Positions 46,168 to 54,580 of a stretch of 64,000 bases of DNA are shown here, in pieces. The position numbers and the translations under genes were made by a program. The DNA is from Nonomuraea angiospora (GTDB taxonomy: Bacteria; Actinomycetota; Actinomycetes; Streptosporangiales; Streptosporangiaceae). The notes under the pieces were generated by a model. The model made no database searches. It had not been told where the DNA came from and saw only the letters and a program-made list of their open reading frames with translations. Positions within the stretch are counted from its first letter, which is position 1; each line of letters opens with the position of its first letter. The stretch lies in the NCBI RefSeq assembly GCF_014873145.1, contig NZ_JADBEK010000001.1, forward strand, positions 248,001-312,000, in the 5' to 3' direction.

Positions 46168-46330
46168 GCCAGGTAGATGGGGCGCTCTGCCGTTGGTGGT
46201 CCCTACGTGGATCGCCGATCAAGTAGCTTCCGGCGGTCATCGCCACCACGACGACGCGAGCGTCAGAGGCGGCCATGCGCCTTGAGTTCCTGGGACGATT
46301 CGGTACTCGGTTCTTTGCCGCCCGAGGCGG

Positions 46331-46516: not shown

Positions 46517-46628
46517 ATCGCTTTCCTCCATCGGTCTCGCATGCAGCCCTCCAGCTACCCGATCAAAGCGCGATATATCGACTTTGGTAATAGTTCGGCA
46601 AATGGAGTGGGTGCGCCTCGGCCATGAC

Positions 46629-46750
46629 GGCATACGGATGTGGGGCTTCGGTCGGGTCCCCAGCCGACCCAGGCGTCGGCCGCACGAGAGCGGCCGGAAG
46701 GAGTTGAACCTCTAACTGCGTGGTAACCGATCAGATTCGACCCGTGCCTT
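46629..46750 (-). ncRNA. Structured RNA module, decayed copy (module D)
   Basis: On the minus strand the module reads GGCACGG, GTCGAA, TCTGATCGGT (46726-46735), TA, a 66-nt insert, then ACCCGACCGAAG (46646-46657), CCCCACAT and CCGTATGCC. Both helices are weaker than in the array at 48.5-48.9 kb, but the loop GTCGAA and CAYATCCGT are kept. The insert has a T-arm (GAGG TTCAACT CCTT), a perfect 7-bp acceptor pair CGGCCGC/GCGGCCG in permuted order, and a D-like arm, but no anticodon arm. It directly follows a broken gene at 46755-47496. Confidence 0.6.
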
Positions 46751-46754
46751 CTGA

Positions 46755-48519: not shown

Positions 48520-48662
48520 CGTCAGCTTTGCCGGAGGACGGATATGGGGCTCCGGCCGGGTGCCCAGCCGATCTGGGCGCCGGCCGCACGGGAGAGCGGC
48601 CGGAAGGAATCGAACCTCAGGTAACCGACCAGATTCGACCCGTGCCACCGGCAAAGCTGACG
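48520..48662 (-). ncRNA. Structured RNA module C (armless tRNA-like insert)
   Basis: Outer helix P1: CGTCAGCTTTGCCGG (48648-48662) pairs perfectly with CCGGCAAAGCTGACG (48520-48534), and continues to ACGG/CCGT. Then loop GTCGAA, P2 strand TCTGGTCGGT (48624-48633), TA, a 60-nt insert (48562-48621), P2' ACCCGGCCGGA (48551-48561), GCCCCATAT and P1'. The insert has a T-arm (GAGG TTCGATT CCTT), a 7-bp permuted acceptor pair CGGCCGC/GCGGCCG and a D-like stem GCCC/GGGC, but nothing like an anticodon arm. The P1 stem of over 20 bp strongly indicates a folded RNA. Confidence 0.75.
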
Positions 48663-48675
48663 AGGGGACCGGTGG

Positions 48676-48827
48676 GGTCCGGAGAAGGCACGGATATGAG
48701 ATGTTCACCGGTATTAGGTGCTCTGCCAACTGAGCTACCGGAACATCGTCCCGGGCAGGACTCGAACCTGCGACAGCCCCATTATCAGTGGTAACCGATG
48801 AACTTCGACCCGTACCCTCACCGGACC
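48676..48827 (-). ncRNA. Structured RNA module B carrying the permuted tRNA
   Basis: P1: GGTCCGGTGAGGGTACGG (48810-48827) pairs with CCGTGCCTTCTCCGGACC (48676-48693), 18 positions with one T/T mismatch and two G-T pairs. Loop GTCGAA (48804-48809). P2: GTTCATCGGT (48794-48803) pairs with ACCGGTGAAC (48703-48712), 10 bp. Opposite loop ATCTCATAT (48694-48702). Between the P2 strands lie TA, the permuted tRNA-Ile, and TAAT. The helices hold the two tRNA junctions side by side, as expected if the RNA is cut there and the halves are joined. Confidence 0.8.
48717..48791 (-). tRNA. Circularly permuted tRNA-Ile (anticodon GAU)
   Basis: Minus-strand order: 3' half first (48791-48747), two-base linker AT, then 5' half (48744-48717). 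Rejoined, it is canonical: acceptor GTTCCGG/CCGGGAC (7 pairs, one G-T), TA at 8-9, D stem GCTC/GAGC with loop AGTTGGCA, A26, anticodon stem CCCCA/TGGGG (first CC from the 5' half, CCA from the 3' half), loop CTGATAA with anticodon GAU, variable CTGTC, T stem GCAGG/CCTGC with loop TTCGAGT, discriminator G: 73 nt exactly. CCA is not encoded. The anticodon stem becomes complete only after joining across the flanking helix, which is strong evidence that the permutation is real and processed. Confidence 0.82.
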
Positions 48828-48852
48828 ATACCGGCGGCCGCAGAGCTGGGAA

Positions 48853-48932
48853 CGAGTACGGATATGAGAAGCGGCACCGGATGTGATCTTTTTTGCAGAA
48901 AGAGATAACCGATGCCATTCGACCCGTACTCG
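48853..48932 (-). ncRNA. Structured RNA module A (short insert)
   Basis: P1 CGAGTACGG (48924-48932) pairs perfectly with CCGTACTCG (48853-48861). Loop GTCGAA, P2 GGCATCGG (48909-48916) pairs perfectly with CCGGTGCC (48873-48880), opposite loop GCTTCTCATAT. The insert between the P2 strands (48881-48908) is only 28 nt, with TCTTT/AAAGA able to form a small hairpin. It shares both conserved loops with modules B and C, so the module is independent of tRNA content. Confidence 0.72.
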
Positions 48933-48984
48933 CACCAGGCCCGACGGAGGTGAGGGACCAGCGAGGTAAGACGCTAGCGAAGTC

Positions 48985-49917: not shown

Positions 49918-52095
49918 TCAGCGGAGGAGAGCGAGGTGCTGGGAGACCGGCCCCAGGGTGAGGAGGCCGCTGCCTGCTCCGGCCAGCTCCGCCGCCGCGG
50001 GTGCGAGCGCGGCGCGGGCGCGCGCCATCGTCTCCCTGTCGCCCACTGCGGCGGCGGCTCGCGCCACCAGGCACCACATGGCCTCCAGGAGCAGGTCGCG
50101 CGGCGGGTCGGGTACGTCGCGCAGCTTCGCCGCGGCCTCGCGGCGGTGTCCGAGCCTGAGCAGGACCAGCGGGCGGGTCCACGGCTCGTAGGGGCCGAAG
50201 TCGGCGCTGTCGTCGGCCGATGTGGGCGAGTTGTGGCGCAGGCGCAGGCACAGGAGGGCGAGCGGTAGGAGGCCGTGTTCCAGGCCGGGCATGCCGGCGC
50301 CGTCCAGCCGGGCGGCGGCGGACCGGTAGGCCGCCTCGGCCTCCTGCGGCGGGGCCTGGCCGGTCGCGTCGAGGCGCAGTGCCCGATACCACTGGGTGAA
50401 CACGCCCACCAGCGGCAGCTCGTGCCGCGCGGCCAGGTGATCGGCGGCGGCCGCGTGGGTGTCGGCTCCGGCGAAGTCCGCGAGCGCGCTGCGGGCTTGG
50501 AGGCGGATGAGGTGGCCGAGGACCTCGTAGGTGGCAAGGCCGTGCCGGGCCGACAGCGCGATCAGCTCGGCGCCGATGGCGTCCCGGCGGGGCGCCAGGC
50601 CCGTACGGTGGAACGTCTGCATGAAGACGCCGTTGAGCGCGAACGCCAGCAGGCCCGGGTCGTCGAGGCGGCGGGCGAGCAGCTCCGCCTCCCTGGCGGC
50701 GACGGGGCCTCGGGGCGCGTTCGCGCCGCGGGATTCCAGCGCGATGGTGGCCAGCAGGCGGGCGCGCACCGCGTCACGAGGCCCCAGCGGGGAACGTGCC
50801 CCATTAGTGGGGGCGGCAGCGGTGCCCTGTGAGGACGCAGTCGCATGCTCGGGGACGGCAGCCGTGCCCGCCGGGGGAGCGGCCATGCCCGGTGGGAGGG
50901 AGGGAGCTGAGTTGGGGATGCTCGGTGGCCGGGTGGTGGCGGTATCCGGTGGGAGGGCCGTTGGGGTGTCCGGTGGGGCGGTGGTGGCGGCGTCTGGTGG
51001 GAGGGGGATGGGAGTGCTCGGTGGGAGGGCGGCGAGGGTGCGTTCGGCGGCTGCGATCACGTGGCTCGCCTGCTCGGGGTCGTCGAGCCGGGTCCAGATC
51101 GCGGGTACGTCGTAGGCGCCGATGACGCGGGCCGTCAGCTCCACGTCCCCCAGTTCCTCGGCCGCCGCGATGGCCGCCACCCGGTGTTCGCGGGCCGCCC
51201 GCAGGCCGCCGCCGCCCGTCACCGCGAGGTCGCGCATCAGCCCCACCGTCGACTCCAGCCGGGCGCGCGCACCCGATGGCACGCTGCGGTCGTAGGCGGC
51301 GGCGGCCCGCGCCCACACCGTGTCCGCCGGGCCTGGACTGCCGGGGGCGAGGTGAGGGGCGTGGTGGAGGATGTCCGCCTCCAGGCGGCTCAGCCCGGGG
51401 CCGGGGTCCACGCCCAGGTGCTCGACCAGCAGCTCGCGCGCCCGGCGCAGCACCGCGAGCGCGTCGCCCTGGCGGCCGGTACGGTACAGGGCCAGGGCCA
51501 GCAGCCGCCAGCCCTCCTCCCGCCAAGGGTGTTCGGCGACGTGCGCGTCCAGGTCGGGGACCGCCTCCCCGGCCAGTCCCAGGTCCAGGCGGGCCTCGGC
51601 GTGGCGTTCGACGGCGTGCAGGCGTAGCTCCGTCAGCCGGGAGCGTTCGGTTCGGCTCCAGGGCTCGTCGGAGAAGTTGGCGTAGGCGGGCCCGCGCCAC
51701 CACCCCAGCGCCTCCTCGATCCGGGGAAGCACGTCCTCCGGCGGCCCCGTGGCGGTCACCGCCCGTTCGAAGCGCCAGGCGTCCACCGCGTCCGGCTCGG
51801 CGCGCAACGCGTACCCCGGCCCCTCGGTGACCAGCAGCCGGGCCGGCGACCTGGGAGGGCGCTGCGGCTCCAGCGCTCGGCGCAGCGCCGCCACGAACGT
51901 GCGCAGCGCGCCCACCGCGTCCGGCGGCGGGTCCTCCCACAGGTCCGTCACGAGGTGGGCGACCGGTACGACGCGCCGCCGCGCGACGATGAGCCGGGCC
52001 AGCACCGCGCGATGGCGCGGCCCCTTCAAGGCGATCGCGTCCCCCGCGTCGTCCCACGCCGCCACCGGCCCCAGCACGCCGAACGTCACCCGCAC
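49918..52095 (-). CDS. SARP/AfsR-type transcriptional regulator (BTAD)
   Basis: A 725-residue regulator: winged-helix trans_reg_C domain (FGVLGPVAAWDDAGDAIALK, RAVLARLIVARRRVVPVAHL), then the bacterial transcriptional activation domain with helical repeats (LRLHAVERHAEARLDLGLAG, ALALYRTGRQGDALAVLRRA, LGVDPGPGLSRLEADILHH). The second half, after a Pro/Ala/Thr-rich repetitive linker (about residues 350-440), is helical and ends without an NB-ARC ATPase, so it is a mid-sized SARP. SARPs activate secondary-metabolite genes. The GTG start is at 52095. Confidence 0.88.
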   Translation of the reverse strand: MRVTFGVLGPVAAWDDAGDAIALKGPRHRAVLARLIVARRRVVPVAHLVTDLWEDPPPDAVGALRTFVAALRRALEPQRPPRSPARLLVTEGPGYALRAEPDAVDAWRFERAVTATGPPEDVLPRIEEALGWWRGPAYANFSDEPWSRTERSRLTELRLHAVERHAEARLDLGLAGEAVPDLDAHVAEHPWREEGWRLLALALYRTGRQGDALAVLRRARELLVEHLGVDPGPGLSRLEADILHHAPHLAPGSPGPADTVWARAAAAYDRSVPSGARARLESTVGLMRDLAVTGGGGLRAAREHRVAAIAAAEELGDVELTARVIGAYDVPAIWTRLDDPEQASHVIAAAERTLAALPPSTPIPLPPDAATTAPPDTPTALPPDTATTRPPSIPNSAPSLPPGMAAPPAGTAAVPEHATASSQGTAAAPTNGARSPLGPRDAVRARLLATIALESRGANAPRGPVAAREAELLARRLDDPGLLAFALNGVFMQTFHRTGLAPRRDAIGAELIALSARHGLATYEVLGHLIRLQARSALADFAGADTHAAAADHLAARHELPLVGVFTQWYRALRLDATGQAPPQEAEAAYRSAAARLDGAGMPGLEHGLLPLALLCLRLRHNSPTSADDSADFGPYEPWTRPLVLLRLGHRREAAAKLRDVPDPPRDLLLEAMWCLVARAAAAVGDRETMARARAALAPAAAELAGAGSGLLTLGPVSQHLALLR

Positions 52096-53383: not shown

Positions 53384-54580
53384 ATGAGCGAGCCTGTAAC
53401 CCTGCCCCTGTACATGCGCCGGAACGCGTTCGACCCGGATCCCGAGCTCGCGGCGGCGCGCGACAGGGACGGTGTCCGGCGGGAGAAGTCGCCGTTCGGC
53501 CTCGACGTCTGGATGGTCAGCCGCTTCGCCGACGTCAGGGAGGTGCTCGGGGACTCCGGGCGCTTCAGCAACGCCCAGCGCAACGTCTTCAGGGCCCCCG
53601 GCATGCCGGAGGTGAGCCCCGAGGAGATCGAGCGGCTGCGGGCGGGCAACCTGCTCGCCTTCGACCCTCCCGAGCACACCCGGCTGCGCCGGATGCTGAC
53701 GCCCGAGTTCACCATGCGCAGGATGCGCCGCCTGGAGCCGCGCATCAGGGACATCGTCACCGAGCACCTCGACGCCATGGAGGCCGCCGGGCCGCCCGCC
53801 GACCTGGTCTCGGCCTTCGCCCTGCCGGTCCCGTCCCTGGTGATCTGCGAGCTGCTCGGCGTCCCGTACGCCGACCGGGGCGACTTCCAGCGCCGTACCG
53901 GGAAGATGCTCGACGTCTCGCTGCCCGTGCGGGAGCGGGCCGCGGCCCAGCTCGAGTCGCGCGCCTACATGGCCGAGCTGGTCGCCCGCACCCGGGCCGA
54001 GCCGGGCGAGGACCTGCTCGGCATGCTCGTACGCGAGCACGGCGACGACCTGAGCACCGACGAGCTGGCCGGCATCGCCTCGCTGCTCCTGCTGGCCGGC
54101 CACGAGACCACCTCCAACATGCTCGGCATCGGCACCCTGGCCCTGCTGCGCCACCCCGGACAGCTGGAGCTCCTCAGGCGGGAGCCCGAGCGGATCAACG
54201 CCGCGGTGGAGGAGCTGCTGCGCTGGCTCAGCATCGTCCACACGGGCACGTTCAAGGTCGCCACGACCGACACCGAGCTGGCCGGGCAGCCGATCGCGGC
54301 GGGTGACCTGGTGATGTGCGCCCTGCCCGCGGCCAACCGCGACCCGGCCTACATCGCCGACCCCGACCGGCTCGACATCGGCCGCGGCGACATGGGGCAC
54401 GTGGCCTTCGGCCATGGCGTGCACCACTGCCTGGGCGCGCCGCTGGCCCGGATGGAGATGCAGATCGCCTTCCCCGCCCTCTTCGAGCGCTTCCCCGGCC
54501 TGCGCGAGGCCGGGGAGCCGGCCGAGTTCCGCGCCTTCAACGTGGTGTACGGGCTGCGCTCGTTCCTGGTGGCCTGGTAA
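53384..54580 (+). CDS. Cytochrome P450
   Basis: A 398-residue soluble bacterial P450: I-helix LLLLAGHETTSNMLGIGTLA, K-helix ExxR in AAVEELLRWLS, and the heme loop AFGHGVHHCLGAPLARMEM with the thiolate Cys349. N-terminal FGLDVWMVSRFADVREVLGD is typical of actinobacterial CYP105/107-like members. Electrons would come from a separate ferredoxin; none is adjacent. GGAG lies 8 bp before the ATG. It heads an operon with the TetR gene. Confidence 0.94.
   Translation: MSEPVTLPLYMRRNAFDPDPELAAARDRDGVRREKSPFGLDVWMVSRFADVREVLGDSGRFSNAQRNVFRAPGMPEVSPEEIERLRAGNLLAFDPPEHTRLRRMLTPEFTMRRMRRLEPRIRDIVTEHLDAMEAAGPPADLVSAFALPVPSLVICELLGVPYADRGDFQRRTGKMLDVSLPVRERAAAQLESRAYMAELVARTRAEPGEDLLGMLVREHGDDLSTDELAGIASLLLLAGHETTSNMLGIGTLALLRHPGQLELLRREPERINAAVEELLRWLSIVHTGTFKVATTDTELAGQPIAAGDLVMCALPAANRDPAYIADPDRLDIGRGDMGHVAFGHGVHHCLGAPLARMEMQIAFPALFERFPGLREAGEPAEFRAFNVVYGLRSFLVAW

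What the first reader, a model, noticed from the sequence alone, without database searches (positions are those of the whole stretch)
48717..48791. Circularly permuted tRNA-Ile(GAU) gene in a bacterium
Seen directly: on the minus strand the 3' half of a tRNA precedes the 5' half, with only AT between. Rejoined, every canonical position fits: acceptor 7/7 pairs, D stem 4/4, anticodon stem 5/5, T stem 5/5, correct loop sizes and invariant bases, 73 nt in total. The anticodon stem 5' strand (CCCCA) exists only if CC of the 5' half joins CCA of the 3' half, exactly where a 10-bp helix brings the ends together. Known: permuted tRNA genes are described in red/green algae and archaea, processed through a circular intermediate. 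I know of none in bacteria. Inferred: the tRNA is made by cutting at the two junctions and joining.
Basis: partly seen in the sequence, partly recalled or inferred. Interest (0 to 1): 0.95.

Follow-up and report, generated by a model that had tools for sequence, protein, structure and literature searches.

The report
Permuted tRNA inside a Y RNA
The scrambled tRNA is real, but it looks like the tRNA-imitating part of a known kind of bacterial small RNA (a Y RNA, partner of the Ro60-type protein) rather than a working tRNA gene; what looks new is that this imitation keeps a complete anticodon arm whose anticodon changes freely between species.

Summary
In detail: 48717-48791 (minus strand) holds a tRNA with its 3' half before its 5' half. 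It is one unit of a small array whose units share a frame (GGGTCGAA ... CGGTTA ... CAYATCCG, two covarying stems). In named relatives such units lie within 300 nt upstream of, and on the strand of, the gene for Rsr, the bacterial Ro60 (TROVE) protein, in 40 of 51 loci. Rfam's YrlA model matches the unit at E 2.8e-9, below its curated cut-off. So this is best read as a Y RNA whose tRNA-mimic module is circularly permuted, a fold already known; the cloverleaf can form without cutting or joining. Against a real tRNA-Ile gene: the anticodon is not conserved (GAT here, CAC in the matching locus of Nonomuraea jabiensis, 17 kinds in 51 parsed units), position 34 shows the most inferred changes of any column, the acceptor end is closed by a 3-nt loop, and the host has a normal tRNA-Ile(GAU). 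Unlike the described YrlA (D, T and acceptor arms), this variant has a full anticodon arm with a conserved loop frame and freely varying anticodon. In this genome the array is an orphan beside an rsr remnant.

The parts
48683..48819 (-). Y RNA unit B: the unit with the permuted tRNA-Ile(GAU)-like module
   Evidence: model R1 147 bits (this sequence is one of the 17 used to build R1); RF02553 YrlA 48.8 bits, E 2.8e-9 at 48687-48798
48792..48819 (-). 5' strand of the frame: outer stem P1, GTCGAA, inner stem P2, TTA
   Evidence: covariation of P1 and P2 in 47 units
48748..48791 (-). tRNA 3' half: anticodon hairpin CCA-CTGATAA-TGG (anticodon GAT 48786-48784), 42-43, variable loop, T arm, acceptor 3' strand
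48745..48747 (-). 3-nt loop closing the acceptor stem; 2-11 nt in 100 parsed related units, exactly TTCG or TCCG in 15
48717..48744 (-). tRNA 5' half: acceptor 5' strand, D arm, A26, C27-C28
48683..48716 (-). 3' strand of the frame: TAATA, P2, ATCTCATAT, P1
48851..48933 (-). Y RNA unit A: same frame, no tRNA module, small hairpin on top
   Evidence: R1 50.3 bits; fold of 48850-48935 has z-score -6.56
48532..48649 (-). Y RNA unit C: same frame, permuted T + acceptor + D arms, no anticodon arm (the layout described for YrlA)
   Evidence: R1 43.6 bits; outer 19-nt inverted repeat 48519-48537/48645-48663
46625..46751 (-). Y RNA unit D: same layout as unit C
   Evidence: R1 37.8 bits, E 1.3e-6
46208..46282 (-). 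probable remnant of the C-terminus of an rsr (Ro60/TROVE) gene
   Evidence: tblastn with one of two queries, 25 aa, 68%, E 0.001 (weak); the matching locus L025 of N. jabiensis has a stronger remnant, E 2e-10

Best explanation
The feature is a bacterial Y RNA of the YrlA kind. The two outer strands pair into the stem that Rsr (bacterial Ro60) is expected to bind; the end of that stem carries a tRNA-mimicking module in circular permutation, because its two ends leave through the anticodon stem and its acceptor end is closed by a short loop. In this actinobacterial variant the module keeps a complete cloverleaf: the frame stem branches off inside the anticodon stem (between positions 28 and 29), leaving a 7-nt anticodon loop. 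Shown here: array, frame, covarying cloverleaf, linkage to rsr in relatives, free change of positions 34-35. Inferred from the known family: binding to Rsr and use of the tRNA-like end to dock tRNA-handling proteins or PNPase. Inferred only: that the varying anticodon loop serves as bait for enzymes or nucleases that recognise anticodon loops. In this genome the array seems to be an orphan of a decayed second rsr locus; the intact rsr with two further Y RNAs lies 2.66 Mb away.
For: The ORF after the array in L012 carries a TROVE domain (PF05731 E 3.7e-7). An rsr match lies in 15 of 20 loci, 78 of 111 (51 close, 26 distant at 23-31% identity, 1 remnant; recount) and 43 of 51 named loci; in 40 of these 43 the last unit is on the same strand within 300 nt upstream of the projected rsr start. 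RF02553 E 2.8e-9, 3.4e-9 in the whole genome. RNAalifold on 17 linear units predicts both frame stems, the anticodon hairpin, T, acceptor and D arms (not the pairs 27-28/42-43). 47 units: 97.9% paired, 0/500 shuffles. Anticodon: 9 kinds in 17 units plus one of two bases, 17 kinds in 51. With columns held out of the tree, position 34 changed 22 times (0 of 132 other columns reach this), 35 18 times (1 of 132); on an rsr protein tree of 40 units 18 (0 of 132) and 13 (5 of 132). Host tRNA-Ile(GAU) at G000:C1:7767803. Bacterial Y RNA superposes on tRNA by circular permutation (PMC11472068, passages) and mimics D, T and acceptor arms (PMC8394870, passages).
Against: The RF02553 score is below Rfam's gathering cut-off (48.8 vs 69 bits), and the same genome search rings below cut-off in 7 of 14 control genomes, so that model alone does not prove membership. 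The window's own array is not beside an intact rsr. No transcript or Rsr-binding data exist here. 12 of 100 well-parsed related units carry N-CCA right after the acceptor 3' strand, which a pure mimic would not need. By entropy, 2 of 132 other columns vary as much as position 34 and 12 as much as 35.
Confidence: 0.92

Rival explanations
1. A true circularly permuted tRNA gene: the unit is cut at both junctions, ends are joined (for example by RtcB), RNase P and CCA addition finish it, and it decodes Ile codons.
For: All tRNA positions fit; in 47 units the loop keeps C/U32, U33 in 46, A38 in 46 and A37 in 38 (G in 8); the host has two RtcB genes; 12 of 100 related units encode N-CCA at the 3' end, 12 CCA at that offset against 6 at all other offsets in 61 caps of 5 nt or more.
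Against: The anticodon is not kept even between matching loci of two species (GAT/CAC, window and L025); in a crude comparison the nearest host tRNA body has the isotype of the anticodon in only 3 of 51 units (my count); the window unit has no CCA and only a 3-nt acceptor loop; 15 of 100 related caps read exactly TTCG or TCCG; an ordinary tRNA-Ile(GAU) exists; neither RtcB gene lies beside rsr or the window.
Confidence: 0.05
2. The anticodon arm is a passive leftover of a captured tRNA gene: only its shape matters, and 34-35 drift neutrally.
For: 34-35 change about as fast as the fastest spacer columns, not clearly faster than all of them. Units without an anticodon arm (type C) stand in the same arrays.
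Against: The loop is 7 nt in 47 of the 48 best-scoring units with 32, 33 and 38 nearly fixed, so the loop itself seems selected; the model that ranked them was built from such units, which favours them.
Confidence: 0.4
3. A relic: the window array is left over from a lost rsr locus and is not expressed.
For: Probable rsr remnant at 46208-46282; the only TROVE matches in the genome are at 2.958 Mb; in the alignment to N. jabiensis unit D is only 73-89% identical and unit A has no counterpart.
Against: Units B and C are 93-98% identical per 100 nt to the N. jabiensis locus, like most of the ORF-rich stretch at 49.2-50.7 kb (91-98% in 15 of its 17 windows), while the stretches next to them (47.8-48.5 and 48.9-49.1 kb) are 72-93%; unit B keeps every pair.
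Confidence: 0.3

Closest known systems
Bacterial Y RNA YrlA (Rfam RF02553; S. Typhimurium YrlA, PDB 6CU1)
   Same: Stem of the two ends plus a circularly permuted tRNA-like module with T, acceptor and D arms, linked to rsr; match at E 2.8e-9.
   Different: The described module resembles the D, T and acceptor arms (PMC8394870, passages); here a 7-nt anticodon loop with variable anticodon is present, the frame stem enters inside the anticodon stem, and up to four different units stand in tandem. Whether the primary papers mention anticodon arms could not be checked.
Circularly permuted tRNA genes of algae and archaea
   Same: 3' half before 5' half.
   Different: Those are genes for tRNAs found through the BHB motif (PMC3978253, start of abstract, passages; processing details recalled); here the frame is tied to rsr and the anticodon is not conserved.
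Permuted (two-piece) tmRNA
   Same: Permuted gene of a tRNA-like RNA in bacteria (PMC3978253, passages).
   Different: Other frame, rsr neighbour; ARAGORN found no tmRNA in the window.

Membership tests
Bacterial Y RNA (YrlA kind) | Long stem of the two ends with a conserved internal motif (Rsr-binding stem) | tested here: met
   P1 and P2 covary, GGGTCGAA/CAYATCC nearly invariant; that Rsr binds it is inferred
Bacterial Y RNA (YrlA kind) | Encoded next to rsr (Ro60/TROVE) | tested here: inconclusive
   Met in relatives (40 of 51 named loci within 300 nt) and for the host's other array (L023); for the window array only a probable rsr remnant
Bacterial Y RNA (YrlA kind) | tRNA-like T, acceptor and D arms in circular permutation | tested here: met
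Bacterial Y RNA (YrlA kind) | Score above the Rfam RF02553 cut-off | tested here: not met
   48.8 bits against 69, E 2.8e-9; so it is filed as a variant, not as a typical YrlA
Bacterial Y RNA (YrlA kind) | Binds Rsr and tethers PNPase | not testable with these tools
   needs biochemistry
Circularly permuted tRNA gene | Codes for one isoacceptor kept by selection | tested here: not met
   9 anticodons in 17 units, 17 in 51; position 34 has the most inferred changes of all columns
Circularly permuted tRNA gene | Mature tRNA with CCA made by cutting and joining | not testable with these tools
   No CCA in the window unit; N-CCA in 12 of 100 parsed related units
Circularly permuted tRNA gene | BHB motif at the junction | not tested
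   By eye a 9-bp stem with a TTA/TAATA inner loop; no BHB search was run

The most novel reading that the evidence does not exclude
Actinobacterial Rsr arrays hold a repertoire of Y RNAs that present complete tRNA cloverleaves with diversified anticodons, acting as decoys or sensors for nucleases or enzymes that recognise specific anticodon loops (a counterpart to the rsr-yrlBA-rtcBA operon of Salmonella, which tRNA fragments induce: PMC7790460, passages); a subset with encoded CCA may even be released as tRNAs.
Probability: 0.25. Interest if true: 0.85.

Novelty: new variant of a known kind. Interest (0 to 1): 0.55.

Why it matters
What the tRNA-like end of bacterial Y RNAs is for is open. 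Here nature has run the mutational scan: anticodon loop shape kept, bases 34-35 free. That makes it directly testable whether the module is bait for anticodon-loop nucleases or modification enzymes, or only a handle of tRNA shape. It also warns that 'permuted tRNA genes' found by eye in bacteria should first be checked for a Ro60 neighbour.

Tried and rejected
Considered early and dropped: a new small tRNA intron or ribozyme whose ends are the frame (dropped when the TROVE gene was seen next to the arrays); integron attC-like or transposon hairpins (thought of, not tested).

First tree test put both 34 and 35 above all 132 other columns, but those columns had built the tree. The fairer test with held-out columns and an rsr tree leaves 34 on top by inferred changes and 35 only among the fastest; by entropy 2 and 12 of 132 columns match them. 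No claim of diversifying selection is made. Position 35 had no G in 47 units, but G35 occurs in Spongiactinospora units (CTTGTAA), so this is not a rule.

'G37 goes with G36' held (13 of 13 G36 units with G37; 37 of 38 others with A37), but these have few independent origins, and two of the 47 class-B units break it (L117, L126): kept only as a hint.

Limits of the parser: its motif fits Nonomuraea and kin and misses other frames and many units that R1 finds; 195 regex places (some plainly chance) gave 122 with a T arm, 100 passed the quality filter, and 51 with a clean 7-nt hairpin were analysed after two without U33 were set aside. The body comparison left out the T arm and the acceptor 3' strand and used host tRNAs of G000 only.

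The genus tally (54 of 54) is inflated: many hits cover only model positions 30-105 and look like ordinary neighbouring tRNA genes.

Papers: Y RNA papers and reviews that I know of (10.1261/rna.047241.114, 10.1016/j.str.2018.09.001, PMC4201824, PMC6047535, PMC6281776, PMC10870794) are not held, so whether an anticodon arm or its variability was described there is unknown. Searches made.

Full report
What is there. On the minus strand, 48791-48717 carries a tRNA 3' half, a 3-nt loop and a tRNA 5' half. Rejoined, it is called tRNA-Ile(gat) by ARAGORN; in genomic order ARAGORN and Rfam at curated cut-offs report nothing.

It is a unit of an array. The same frame, GGGTCGAA-(P2)-CGGTTA ... (P2')-CAYATCCG inside an outer stem P1, occurs on the minus strand at 48851-48933 (unit A, no tRNA), 48683-48819 (unit B, the finding), 48532-48649 (unit C, T + acceptor + D arms only) and 46625-46751 (unit D, like C). 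Unit A folds with z = -6.56.

Relatives. A BLASTN of the region matched 23 of 59 genomes (some hits are short and may be ordinary tRNA pieces). A covariance model R1 built from 17 B-type units gave full-length hits of 50 bits or more in at least 33 of 54 genomes of the genus (list cut; 54 of 54 have some hit, but those over positions 30-105 alone look like ordinary neighbouring tRNAs), hits in 112 of 298 genomes and 33 of 68 genera of the family at E <= 1e-10 (at least one of these covers only positions 30-106), and in 11 of 396 genomes of the phylum at E <= 1e-8, one being the host and three having only tRNA-like partial hits. A pattern scan of one genome for each of 84,980 species gave 51 stretches, in Nonomuraea, Herbidospora, Streptosporangium, Sphaerisporangium, Spongiactinospora, Actinomadura, Microtetraspora, Sinosporangium, Thermoactinospora and one unclassified Streptosporangiaceae (the window's own record may be left out). 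The sister genome G010 has the contig length of Nonomuraea jabiensis DSM 45507, so the host is a Nonomuraea (inferred).

The neighbour. In L003, L007, L011, L012 and L014 the array ends just before an ORF on the same strand. The product from L012 carries a TROVE domain: Rsr, the bacterial Ro60; the other four match it by tblastn in overlapping loci (L026, L037, L033, L035). An rsr match lies in 15 of 20 loci, in 78 of 111 loci (51 close, 26 distant at 23-31% identity, one remnant; several loci have only 1.5-2.5 kb of flank) and in 43 of 51 named loci. In 40 of those 43 the last unit lies on the same strand within 300 nt upstream of the projected rsr start, mostly 11-73 nt; L229 and L246 are at 376 and 396 nt, and L235 has only a C-terminal rsr piece and no unit upstream of it. 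The host's intact rsr is at G000:C1:2957.7-2959.3 kb with two units upstream. The window array, 2.66 Mb away, has only a probable rsr C-terminal remnant at 46208-46282 (25 aa, E 0.001); the matching N. jabiensis locus has a clearer one. Against that locus units B and C are 93-98% identical per 100 nt, the stretches next to them 72-93%, unit D 73-89%; unit A has no counterpart there. So B and C may still be under selection; D and A speak less for it.

What it is. The frame plus permuted tRNA module is the layout of bacterial Y RNAs. RF02553 (YrlA) hits unit B with 48.8 bits, E 2.8e-9, below its cut-off of 69; the same model rings below cut-off in 7 of 14 control genomes, so the case rests on rsr linkage and structure more than on that score. 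A review states that YrlA mimics the D, T and acceptor arms and binds Rsr and PNPase (PMC8394870, passages); a structure-comparison paper reports that bacterial Y RNA 6CU1 superposes on tRNAs by circular permutation (PMC11472068, passages). Permuted tRNA folds in bacteria are therefore known, as mimics.

Structure. RNAalifold on the 17 aligned linear sequences predicts the frame stems, the anticodon hairpin, T, acceptor and D arms (it did not predict the two pairs 27-28/42-43). On a MAFFT alignment of 47 units the full structure has 97.9% of cells paired, 22 of 40 pairs with changes on both sides, 0 of 500 shuffles as good; slid versions reach at most 43.7%. The anticodon stem shows double changes in both of its parts, 29-31/39-41 and 27-28/42-43. 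The cloverleaf can thus form without cutting and joining; the frame stem leaves it between positions 28 and 29.

Anticodon. 17 rejoined units give nine anticodons, and one more a two-base one; 51 parsed units give 17. In 47 of the 48 best-scoring units the loop is 7 nt; in those 47 position 33 is U in 46, 38 is A in 46, 32 is C or U, 37 is A in 38 and G in 8. With columns held out of the tree, position 34 changed 22 times (none of 132 other columns reaches it), 35 18 times (one reaches it), 36 nine times (29 reach it); on an rsr protein tree of 40 units 18 (0 of 132), 13 (5 of 132) and 7 (47 of 132); by entropy 2, 12 and 20 of 132 columns equal or exceed 34, 35 and 36. So 34-35 vary like the freest spacers inside a conserved loop. 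The nearest host tRNA body has the isotype of the anticodon in 3 of 51 units (my count, crude comparison). In a second family of the class five units have B-like hairpins with GAT, GTT, CTT, CTT and CAT near a distant rsr-like match (L290, L289, L295, L298, L297, read by eye; the other seven units printed there are built otherwise or were not classified).

Acceptor end. In 100 well-parsed units the cap is 2-11 nt; 15 read exactly TTCG or TCCG; 12 start N-CCA, against 6 CCA at other offsets in 61 caps of 5 nt or more. Six of the 12 are from one genus, g54, which contig lengths identify as Herbidospora. Unit B of the window has GAT, no CCA. Some relatives may thus keep a real tRNA 3' end; this is the main point left for a tRNA role.

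Judgement. A Y RNA with a full, permuted cloverleaf and free anticodon: new variant of a known kind. Whether the anticodon arm was described before could not be checked, because the primary papers are not held.

Noticed in passing
46208-46282 (-): Probable remnant of an rsr (Ro60) C-terminus, about 2.2 kb downstream of units A-C; a clearer remnant exists in the matching N. jabiensis locus L025.
   Followed up: partly
L264, L265, L269, L270, L275, L280, L281 (IMG/VR contigs): Viral contigs, some perhaps true actinophages, carry rsr-like genes at 31-57% identity in the same stretch as permuted-tRNA Y RNA units; L282/L283 carry AT-rich, weaker unit matches without an rsr hit.
   Followed up: partly
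L183, L195 and L204 (host genome; L183 = G000:C1:1179200-1179520): Host tRNA-Leu(aag), (taa) and (caa) of short type without a long variable arm, the first in a cluster with unusual tRNA-Glu and tRNA-Ala genes.
   Followed up: no
L119-L122, L124, L125 (genus g54, Herbidospora): Y RNA units with encoded G-CCA after the acceptor 3' strand and anticodon loops CTCCGGA, CTTCGGA or TTCTGGA with G37.
   Followed up: partly
L095:1670-1812 (+): A Y RNA unit whose D arm and anticodon loop (TTCTGGT) look like the host type of tRNA-Gln(CTG): perhaps a separate tRNA capture.
   Followed up: no
49918-52095 (-), 53384-54580 (+): ORFs that look like a SARP/AfsR-type regulator and a cytochrome P450 beside the array (by eye).
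   Followed up: no
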